Assembly: GCA_002010065.2 (NCBI GenBank)
Contig: MTMD02000002.1
Location: 372,001 to 436,000, forward strand
DNA: 64,000 nucleotides
Source of the DNA: Candidatus Pyrohabitans jungbluthii
GTDB taxonomy: Archaea; Hydrothermarchaeota; Hydrothermarchaeia; Hydrothermarchaeales; BMS3B
Direction of reading: 5' to 3'
Position numbers and translations under genes: made by a program. Below, one piece after another: positions 6,118 to 8,107 of the stretch. Position 1 is the stretch's first letter; every line of letters starts with the position of its first letter. The notes below the pieces were generated by a model. That model was given only the letters and a program-made list of their open reading frames with translations, did no database searches and was not told the origin of the DNA.

Positions 6118-6650
6118 CACTCCACCTCCTTGTAGGCATGGAGAAGCGCCGGCAGCATGCCGATTACAGTGCAGGTCTCGAAGGGCACAGCTTTGCCTGA
6201 AAGCTCTAAGTGATGCCTAGCCATGCTCAGCACCTCTTTTGGCAAGCCCCGCCTCCCCAAGCCCATTACCACCAGGAAGGACTTGCCTCGCTTAGCTCGC
6301 GCAGCCAGCTCTCTGGGTGAGATGTGCTTCTCCTGTGCAGGCTTCGACGTTGCTGCCACCACCTCGCCGAGCTGGGGAGGGAACCCACGGCGGGGAAACT
6401 CAAAGATGTTCAGCCTGCCCTTAGATGCGAGTAGCTTCAAGTAGCGTCCGCCTTCGCCTATGGTGGTGTCGCTCGCAAGTTCTTCCACAATGCTTGAGAA
6501 GCTGCCCTCAAAAGGGAAGCCAAAAAGCGCAAGGTTTACCTCAAAGGCATAGCAAACTGGCGCCGCCCTGGCTATGCTTCGCTTGTGGATGTCGTGCAAC
6601 CTCGCAGCATCGTAGCTGTTGTATAACCCCAGGGTTATCCTTCCTCCCAT
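6117..6650 (-). CDS. DUF531 protein, SPOUT-like
   Basis: 177 residues recognised from the archaeal DUF531 family by its N-terminal GLYNSYDAARLHDIHKRS and the NLALFGFPF segment. A C-terminal LVVMGLGRRGLPKEVLSMA loop resembles the knotted cofactor-binding region of SPOUT RNA methylases. The family has no proven reaction; RNA methylation is an inference from fold similarity and from its operon with Csl4, Rpo11 and TFS. It overlaps the upstream RNase III-like gene by 16 bases and the downstream NUDIX gene by one base. Confidence 0.75.
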   Translation of the reverse strand: MGGRITLGLYNSYDAARLHDIHKRSIARAAPVCYAFEVNLALFGFPFEGSFSSIVEELASDTTIGEGGRYLKLLASKGRLNIFEFPRRGFPPQLGEVVAATSKPAQEKHISPRELAARAKRGKSFLVVMGLGRRGLPKEVLSMARHHLELSGKAVPFETCTVIGMLPALLHAYKEVE

Positions 6651-7069
6651 ATTGCATTACCCGCCTGTGCGAGAAGCGCCGCGAAGGCAGCTACCGACGC
6701 TGCTCTGAGTTCTCCCTCACGAGCCCCACGAAGCTTGTCCTCGAGTAAAGCAACGCACTCCTCAAGCGTTAGCGCTCCCTGAAGAAACGCTTGAGCAAGT
6801 AAGCTCTCGGCGAAGTCGCCCAGTTTGTGTTTATCTACCCGCGTGCCCGCACGCTCTCGCAGTCCTGCCTTAACCACAGCCTCCGCGAGAATTGAGTTGG
6901 AAACCTTCCTTCCCACCACCCTGCCAAGCGCCCGCGAAAGCGCGAGGGAGTAGATTAGGTTGGCTATGCTATCGCCAAGCGGAGAAAGCTCAGCAAAGCT
7001 GGTATCAAATCCCAGTACCGGGTAGCTTCTTTTCTTCTCCTTAGCTTTCCAGCTTCTTCTGCAGCTCAT
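6635..7069 (-). CDS. Archaeal RNase III-like domain protein
   Basis: About 144 residues, helical, with the segment SPLGDSIANLIYSLALS and KLGDFAESLLAQAFLQGALT. This matches the stand-alone archaeal ribonuclease III-like family (Ribonuclease_3_2). GDSIANLIY and the later D/E residues would correspond to the catalytic helix, but I cannot confirm a full RNase III signature. I chose the ATG at 7069 because AAGGAG lies just upstream; this gives a 29-base overlap with rpo11. A further upstream ATG at 7084 lacks support. Context with exosome and RNA polymerase genes agrees with a role in RNA processing. Confidence 0.65.
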   Translation of the reverse strand: MSCRRSWKAKEKKRSYPVLGFDTSFAELSPLGDSIANLIYSLALSRALGRVVGRKVSNSILAEAVVKAGLRERAGTRVDKHKLGDFAESLLAQAFLQGALTLEECVALLEDKLRGAREGELRAASVAAFAALLAQAGNAIWEEG

Positions 7070-7526
7070 CAAACTCCTTCGCAACTTCTTTAAGCACCTG
7101 CTTCAGCACAAAGCGAGGTGGCGAGGGAATGCCGTAGTCCAGCTTTTTTGCCTCGCTCACATAGCGTTCGAGTATTGACTTGGCTATGCCCGTCTTCTCA
7201 GCCAGCTCGTCTAAGTCGGCCTTGAGCAGGGCGTTAGCTGTGGTAATCCCCGCCTCCGCAAGCTGCTCCTTCCGCTTTGGGCCTATGCCCGGCACGGCTG
7301 TTATCTCAACCTCCTTCTCACTCTCGCGGGGCACCTCTATCCCAGCTTTAACCTTGAGGTAGACCACGGGCTGAGAGAGCAGCGGATGGGCTATGCGATA
7401 CGACGCAGCCACTACCGCGTCGTTTTGGTTAAGTGCCTGACGCAGCAGATTGCAGAAGGTGTGATCTTCACCTGCGAGCTCAAACTCCAGCTCAGTATCG
7501 TTCTCCCTGATAACCCTTATCTCCAC
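7041..7526 (-). CDS. rpo11: RNA polymerase subunit Rpo11 (L) with inserted helix-hairpin-helix domain
   Basis: The first 62 residues are a normal Rpo11: EFELAGEDHTFCNLLRQAL, then YRIAHPLLSQPVVYLKVKAG. The last 25 (PRFVLKQVLKEVAKEFDEL) are the usual C-terminal dimerisation helix. Between them sits an extra stretch of about 72 residues, with ITAVPGIGPKRKEQLAEAGI followed by LAEKTGIAKSILERYVSEAK: a helix-hairpin-helix pair of the kind that binds DNA. The total of 161 residues compares with roughly 90-100 for ordinary Rpo11. Rpo11 pairs with Rpo3 in the assembly platform of RNA polymerase. The gene lies 11 bases after csl4. No frameshift is needed; the insert is in frame. Confidence 0.9.
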   Translation of the reverse strand: MEIRVIRENDTELEFELAGEDHTFCNLLRQALNQNDAVVAASYRIAHPLLSQPVVYLKVKAGIEVPRESEKEVEITAVPGIGPKRKEQLAEAGITTANALLKADLDELAEKTGIAKSILERYVSEAKKLDYGIPSPPRFVLKQVLKEVAKEFDELQKKLES

Positions 7527-7537
7527 GTCACAACCCC

Positions 7538-8107
7538 CTATATAACTCCCTTGCCATACTCTGTGGAATATTTCCGCGATTCATACCTGCCACAGTTGGG
7601 GCACACTAGCTTATTACCCTCAAGCCTCAGCGCTATGTTGCAGTTGGTGCAGTAAGCTTTGATGGCGCCAAGCGGGCGCTCAACCATAGACAAGGCGATG
7701 GGCACGCGCCTGGTGTTGGTAACCTTGGCAAGAACCACGTCGCCTATCTTGATCTCACGGTCTATGTCCTGTACATAGGTGTTGCGAAGCTGGGAGATGT
7801 GGATAGTGCCGTAAACATTGCCAGGAAGCTCGCGGCGGCTGCGCATAAGGCGTATAAGCTTCACCAAAGCAAACTGCTGCTTTACGTCTATTACCTTGCA
7901 CACCGCGATGTCGCCCACGCGAGGCTCTGGTATGATGTTTGTCTTGGGCTCAACCTCAATCTTACGCTCTTTCATGTCTATCTTGAGCACACCCGTAAGA
8001 GATGCGAATATCCTGCCGCTCTCCTCGTAGGTGCCTTTCCCCGGGATGAACTCCTCGCTGAACCCCAGCTCCTTGCCGGGGACAACAAACTCACCTGCCT
8101 CAACCAT
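7538..8107 (-). CDS. csl4: Exosome RNA-binding subunit Csl4
   Basis: 189 residues with the Csl4 layout: an N-terminal barrel-like segment (FVVPGKELGFSEEFIPGKGT), a central S1 domain (PRVGDIAVCKVIDVKQQFAL through IKIGDVVLAKVTN), and a C-terminal zinc ribbon with CTNC and CPNC. It forms part of the cap on the archaeal exosome and guides RNA into the Rrp41/Rrp42 ring for 3'-5' decay. AAGGAGG precedes the ATG. It overlaps the METTL5 gene by 8 bases, so translation is coupled. Confidence 0.95.
   Translation of the reverse strand: MVEAGEFVVPGKELGFSEEFIPGKGTYEESGRIFASLTGVLKIDMKERKIEVEPKTNIIPEPRVGDIAVCKVIDVKQQFALVKLIRLMRSRRELPGNVYGTIHISQLRNTYVQDIDREIKIGDVVLAKVTNTRRVPIALSMVERPLGAIKAYCTNCNIALRLEGNKLVCPNCGRYESRKYSTEYGKGVI

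What the first reader, a model, noticed from the sequence alone, without database searches (positions are those of the whole stretch)
7041..7526. RNA polymerase subunit Rpo11 with an inserted helix-hairpin-helix domain
Rpo11 is a compact subunit of under 100 residues. Here about 72 residues with PGIGPKRKEQLAEAGI and TGIAKSILERYVSE are inserted in frame between the core strands and the last helix. Both halves of Rpo11 look normal. The insert could give the assembly platform an extra nucleic acid contact, comparable in idea to the bacterial alpha C-terminal domain, though at a different place.
Basis: partly seen in the sequence, partly recalled or inferred. Interest (0 to 1): 0.66.

Follow-up and report, generated by a model that had tools for sequence, protein, structure and literature searches.

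The report
RNA polymerase subunit with inserted domain
In one whole phylum of deep-sea archaea (Hydrothermarchaeota), a small, normally compact scaffold subunit of RNA polymerase carries an inserted domain of a type that usually grips DNA or RNA; bacteria carry a distantly similar domain on the matching subunit, but at a different place.

Summary
The ORF at 7041-7526 (minus strand, GTG start, 161 aa) is a genuine Rpo11. A 71-residue insert (residues 67-137) sits between the last core strand and the C-terminal helix and holds a Pfam HHH_5 domain (E 8e-11). Removing it in silico restores the full Rpo11 profile match (63.5 to 72.4 bits; profile 1-49 becomes 1-74). The AlphaFold model is confident (pLDDT 91).

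It is neither a local oddity nor an artefact. All 22 Hydrothermarchaeota genomes with a detectable rpo11 have the elongated form as their only copy. dN/dS of the insert is about 0.04-0.19. None of about 371 other archaeal genomes shows a match spanning it. In two deep families (3 genomes) the insert persists without the hairpin motif and is predicted to be rigid.

The nearest relatives of the domain are C-terminal HHH domains of ribosomal proteins eL13 and uL10 in the same phylum, not bacterial alpha-CTD.

Most likely it is a tethered accessory contact module on the assembly platform, probably touching nucleic acid. That function is inferred; near-neutral charge and loss of the hairpin in the deep families argue for caution. 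I found no published description in the open-access library.

The parts
7041..7526 (-). rpo11 (rpoL) gene, 161 aa, GTG start, with inserted HHH domain
   Evidence: synteny
7329..7526 (-). Rpo11 core, residues 1-66 (strands 2-8, 12-18, 38-44, 54-59; helix 22-34; GEDHTFCN motif)
   Evidence: PF13656 E 1.5e-17; AlphaFold model
7116..7328 (-). insert, residues 67-137, not found in the other archaeal Rpo11 surveyed
   Evidence: alignments; survey; excision test
7143..7307 (-). HHH_5 domain, residues 74-128 (two HhH motifs; helices 83-91, 97-102, 105-112, 116-126)
   Evidence: PF14520 E 8.1e-11; model; aligns with RadA N-terminal domain 2zuc_A, rmsd 1.5 over 54 columns
7275..7289 (-). first hairpin GIGPK, residues 80-84; G-hydrophobic-G kept in all 19 members of the window's order with rpo11, lost in three genomes of two other families
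7179..7193 (-). second hairpin TGIAK, residues 112-116
7131..7145 (-). KLDYG motif (residues 128-132) between HHH domain and C-helix, conserved in much of the order, not seen in the eL13/uL10 HHH relatives
7047..7121 (-). C-terminal Rpo11 helix, residues 136-160
   Evidence: model; excision test
7538..8107 (-). csl4 (exosome RNA-binding protein), immediately upstream; conserved neighbour
   Evidence: NF034126 E 5.9e-56
6635..7018 (-). RNase III-like gene (PF11469) immediately downstream; conserved neighbour in most of the phylum

Best explanation
This is the sole Rpo11 subunit of a Hydrothermarchaeota RNA polymerase. It pairs with Rpo3 through its intact core and C-terminal helix. In an ancestor of the phylum, an HHH domain of the same subfamily as the C-terminal domains of ribosomal proteins eL13 and uL10 came to lie in the loop between the last core strand and the C-terminal helix. 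In the window's order the domain is a small folded module held by two linkers on the outside of the assembly platform. There it most likely adds a weak, sequence-independent contact to nucleic acid near the polymerase (upstream or flanking DNA, or nascent RNA), as alpha-CTD does in bacteria but from another attachment point. In two deep-branching families it is a rigid hairpin-less helical block, probably with a structural or protein-contact role. Shown: identity, position, phylum-wide presence, purifying selection, confident predicted fold, relation to eL13/uL10 HHH. Inferred: assembly with Rpo3, exposure, nucleic-acid contact, and which nucleic acid.
For: Pfam and excision tests. Elongated form in 22 of 22 phylum genomes with rpo11, single copy each. 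Bits 145-246 in the phylum against at most 82 in about 371 other archaeal genomes, those matches essentially confined to the Rpo11 core. Purifying selection on the insert (omega about 0.04-0.19, core about 0.09-0.25). Synteny methyltransferase-csl4-rpo11-RNase III-like. AlphaFold pLDDT 90.7, lower at linker 61-70 (76). Foldseek: archaeal Rpo11 chains, plant Pol IV/V Rpb11 aligned across the insert with target TM 0.72-0.80, and RadA N-terminal domains for the HHH part. HHH subfamily shared with eL13 and uL10. Normal-length Rpo3 partner gene. alpha-CTD has two HhH motifs on a flexible linker facing upstream DNA (PMC5101437).
Against: Net charge of the insert is near neutral (-3 to +6). The hairpin is lost in three genomes of two families although the insert is kept. 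HHH domains also serve protein-protein contacts. No solved RNA polymerase structure of this phylum came up in the searches, and the position of the insert on the whole enzyme was not modelled.
Confidence: 0.5

Rival explanations
1. The insert is mainly a protein docking or assembly-stabilising element: it contacts neighbouring subunits or a phylum-specific factor, and the HhH motifs are inherited structure rather than a working nucleic-acid site.
For: Near-neutral charge; in two deep families the hairpin is gone yet the insert is kept and the whole chain is predicted as one confident unit (pLDDT 95.5, pTM 0.83); the KLDYG linker is conserved beyond what a passive tether needs.
Against: The G-hydrophobic-G hairpin is kept in all 19 genomes of the window's order, as expected for a working HhH site.
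Confidence: 0.3
2. The domain contacts RNA or the ribosome rather than DNA: the same HHH subfamily sits on eL13 and uL10, so it may help coordinate transcription with ribosome assembly or translation.
For: Closest relatives of the insert are HHH domains of eL13 (up to 56 percent identity) and uL10 (55 percent) of the same phylum, well apart from RadA and Hel308.
Against: Shared ancestry does not mean a shared ligand; only six phylum genomes with HHH-bearing eL13 and one with HHH-bearing uL10 were found, so co-occurrence is not general.
Confidence: 0.15
3. A recent gene fusion, intein or assembly artefact without function.
For: None beyond the unusual architecture.
Against: Present in 22 genomes of 9 families, including a 1.92 Mb contig of Ca. 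Hydrothermarchaeum profundi; purifying selection; no intein-type length or domain.
Confidence: 0.01

Closest known systems
Canonical archaeal Rpo11 / RpoL (e.g. Thermococcus kodakarensis 4qjv, 4qiw; Sulfolobus/Saccharolobus 2pa8, 2waq)
   Same: Core fold, GEDHTF motif, C-terminal helix, single copy, csl4 neighbourhood
   Different: About 85-113 aa in the homologues read here, with no domain between last strand and C-helix; here 71 residues inserted
Bacterial RNA polymerase alpha C-terminal domain (PF03118)
   Same: Small HhH-type domain attached by linker to the homologous assembly-platform subunit
   Different: alpha-CTD follows the last NTD helix on a one-ended linker; here the domain is inserted before the last helix and held at both ends. 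Sequence is closer to eL13/uL10/RadA HHH. DNA binding untested.
RadA/Rad51 N-terminal HhH domain (HHH_5, PF14520)
   Same: Fold and two HhH motifs (2zuc_A rmsd 1.5 over 54 columns)
   Different: About 26-36 percent identity; different host protein
C-terminal HHH domains of ribosomal proteins eL13 and uL10 in Hydrothermarchaeota
   Same: Same HHH subfamily, 44-56 percent identity
   Different: Appended at the C-terminus of ribosomal proteins, not inserted in an RNA polymerase subunit
Ferredoxin-like domain of Rpo3 (PMC5300874)
   Same: Lineage-specific extra domain on the alpha-like heterodimer
   Different: Other subunit, Fe-S fold, role in assembly

Membership tests
Archaeal Rpo11 (RpoL) | RNA_pol_L_2 dimerisation domain above gathering score | tested here: met
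   63.5 bits against cut-off 27; 72.4 bits over profile 1-74 when the insert is removed
Archaeal Rpo11 (RpoL) | Only Rpo11 of the genome, in the csl4 neighbourhood | tested here: met
   single match per genome; csl4 upstream in nearly all loci compared
Archaeal Rpo11 (RpoL) | Score over the cut-off of an NCBIfam Rpo11 equivalog | tested here: not met
   62.5 bits against cut-off 73 for the best model, because the insert interrupts the match. This is a length criterion of those models, not a feature of fold or orthology
Archaeal Rpo11 (RpoL) | Physical heterodimer with Rpo3 in the polymerase | not testable with these tools
   no structure or proteomics; a normal-length Rpo3 gene is present
HHH_5 helix-hairpin-helix domain | Pfam HHH_5 above gathering score with two HhH motifs | tested here: met
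   42.7 bits against cut-off 27, profile 3-57 of 57; 16 of 18 aligned members match at E up to 1
HHH_5 helix-hairpin-helix domain | Binds nucleic acid | not testable with these tools
   only hairpin conservation and charge could be computed
Bacterial alpha-CTD | Match to PF03118 | tested here: not met
   not reported for the window protein at E up to 1; 2 of 18 members match, best E 0.0022
Bacterial alpha-CTD | Located C-terminal to the dimerisation domain on a one-ended flexible linker | tested here: not met
   inserted before the last helix
Bacterial alpha-CTD | Contacts upstream promoter DNA and activators | not testable with these tools
   needs biochemistry
Intein | Splicing-domain length and Hint-type domain | tested here: not met
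   71-residue HHH domain, no Hint match at E up to 1

The most novel reading that the evidence does not exclude
Hydrothermarchaeota evolved an archaeal counterpart of the alpha-CTD: an HHH module on the alpha-homologous platform that touches upstream DNA and recruits regulators, reached independently from a domain of the same broad HhH type, and present as a rigid hairpin-less element in two deep families.
Probability: 0.22. Interest if true: 0.85.

Novelty: new variant of a known kind. Interest (0 to 1): 0.6.

Why it matters
Rpo11/Rpb11 is among the most conserved small subunits of cellular RNA polymerases, and no accessory nucleic-acid-type domain on it turned up in the papers searched. A domain fixed across a whole phylum means the archaeal polymerase platform can gain extra modules as the bacterial one did. 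It offers a natural test of whether HhH modules on the alpha-like platform are repeatedly useful, links polymerase evolution to an HHH subfamily also placed on ribosomal proteins, and gives a simple marker trait for Hydrothermarchaeota.

Tried and rejected
Intein, frameshift or assembly artefact: rejected by distribution, open frame in every genome, dN/dS and domain content. A second, uninserted Rpo11 in the genome: none. True absence of the gene in G011: no rpo11 match and only sub-threshold csl4 matches, so the operon is probably missing from that fragmented assembly. Membership of the alpha-CTD family: not met. Direction of domain transfer between eL13 and Rpo11: about 60 columns could not resolve it. 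An alignment of the whole phylum gave no stretch conserved enough for a collection scan; a narrower one worked. A related protein in phage records: none. Papers on Rpo11 with helix-hairpin-helix, or on Hydrothermarchaeota with RNA polymerase subunits: nothing describing this.

Full report
Observation. The ORF at 7041-7526 on the minus strand encodes 161 residues from a GTG start. Pfam finds the Rpo11 dimerisation domain at residues 12-62, matching only profile positions 1-49 of 75, and an HHH_5 domain at residues 74-128 that covers profile 3-57 of 57. Aligned with 26 uninserted archaeal Rpo11 proteins, the insert falls between residue 66 and residue 138, just before the C-terminal helix. Removing it in silico extends the Rpo11 match to profile 1-74 and raises the score from 63.5 to 72.4 bits; in Ca. 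Hydrothermarchaeum profundi from 74.6 to 83.9. Both halves are therefore genuine Rpo11.

Distribution. The window lies in a genome of the small phylum Hydrothermarchaeota: named relatives include Candidatus Pyrohabitans sp. JdFR-17 (91 percent identical protein) and Candidatus Hydrothermarchaeum profundi JdFR-18. Of 23 phylum genomes held, 22 have an Rpo11 match, each a single copy and each elongated; the proteins aligned are 145-164 aa, and one further record has a possible longer N-terminus. The exception, G011, has no rpo11 match and only sub-threshold csl4 matches, so the locus is probably missing from that assembly. Across the phylum plus about 371 other archaeal genomes, a profile of the elongated protein scores 145-246 bits in the phylum and at most 82 elsewhere; outside the phylum the listed matches cover essentially the Rpo11 core, a few running on only through stop codons (the list is cut below about 55 bits, but full-length matches would rank first). 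The insert is thus a shared derived trait of the phylum. Gene order methyltransferase - csl4 - rpo11 - RNase III-like is conserved through most of the phylum and partly in other archaea.

Selection. Pairwise Nei-Gojobori estimates within two genera give dN/dS of about 0.04-0.19 for the insert and 0.09-0.25 for the core, so the insert is maintained as protein.

Structure. AlphaFold2 on a 40-sequence alignment gives pLDDT 90.7 and pTM 0.67: a normal Rpo11 sheet and helix, a lower-confidence linker (61-70, about 76), an HHH domain with helices 83-91, 97-102, 105-112 and 116-126, then a 25-residue C-helix. Foldseek returns archaeal Rpo11 chains first, plant Pol IV/V Rpb11 chains aligned across the insert (target TM 0.72-0.80), and RadA N-terminal domains for the HHH part. 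The lower pTM with high pLDDT suggests, but does not prove, variable orientation of the two parts.

Deep variants. In three genomes of two other families of the class (f9, f10) the insert is shorter (52-56 against 67-71 residues) and lacks the G-hydrophobic-G hairpin. The prediction for one of them is more confident as a whole (pLDDT 95.5, pTM 0.83), with the insert helices leading closely into the C-helix (fold search). Either the nucleic-acid-type hairpin was lost there, or the working contact arose later in the other order; this was not resolved.

Origin of the domain. Within the phylum the closest relatives of the insert are the C-terminal HHH domains of eL13 (Pyrohabitans, Hydrothermarchaeum and one more genus; 44-56 percent) and, in one genome, of uL10 (55 percent); RadA and Hel308 HHH domains are more distant. 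A tree of 60 columns separates the Rpo11/eL13/uL10 group from RadA/Hel308 (support 97/97) but does not resolve who gave the domain to whom. eL13 of some other archaeal genomes also aligns through the C-terminal part, in degenerate form, so an eL13-type donor is plausible.

Mechanism. In bacteria, alpha-CTDs with two HhH motifs are tethered to the homologous platform and contact upstream DNA and activators (PMC5101437; PMC13374769). The Hydrothermarchaeota insert is comparable in size, fold type and host subunit but sits before the last helix and is held at both ends. I consider an accessory nucleic-acid contact most likely in the window's order. Hairpin conservation supports it; near-neutral charge, the hairpin-less variants and the ribosomal relatives keep protein docking and RNA contact open. 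None of this was tested experimentally, and the place of the insert on the whole enzyme was not modelled.

Known or new. No paper in the searched open-access library describes an HHH domain in Rpo11 or this trait in Hydrothermarchaeota; most subscription journals were not searchable. I file it as a new variant of a known kind: a real Rpo11 with a phylum-specific inserted domain.

Noticed in passing
L032 4942-5352 (own genome G000:C5): Ribosomal protein eL13 carries a C-terminal HHH_5 domain 53-56 percent identical to the Rpo11 insert; found in six phylum genomes, with a degenerate counterpart in some other archaea.
   Followed up: partly
L037 1780-2943 (G014): Ribosomal stalk protein uL10 ends in an HHH_5 domain of the same subfamily (PF14520 E 5.3e-9).
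   Followed up: partly
L021, L022, L023 rpo11: Hairpin-less, shorter version of the insert in two deep families of the class, predicted to be rigid.
   Followed up: partly
window 7047-7112: Codons 139-160 of rpo11 show few or no synonymous differences in several pairs (Ks 0.00-0.37 against about 0.33-1.4 elsewhere in the gene); perhaps a signal for the downstream gene, or chance in 22 codons.
   Followed up: no
G011 (same order): rpo11 not found and csl4 only below threshold in this genome listed as 93 percent complete; probably an assembly gap.
   Followed up: partly
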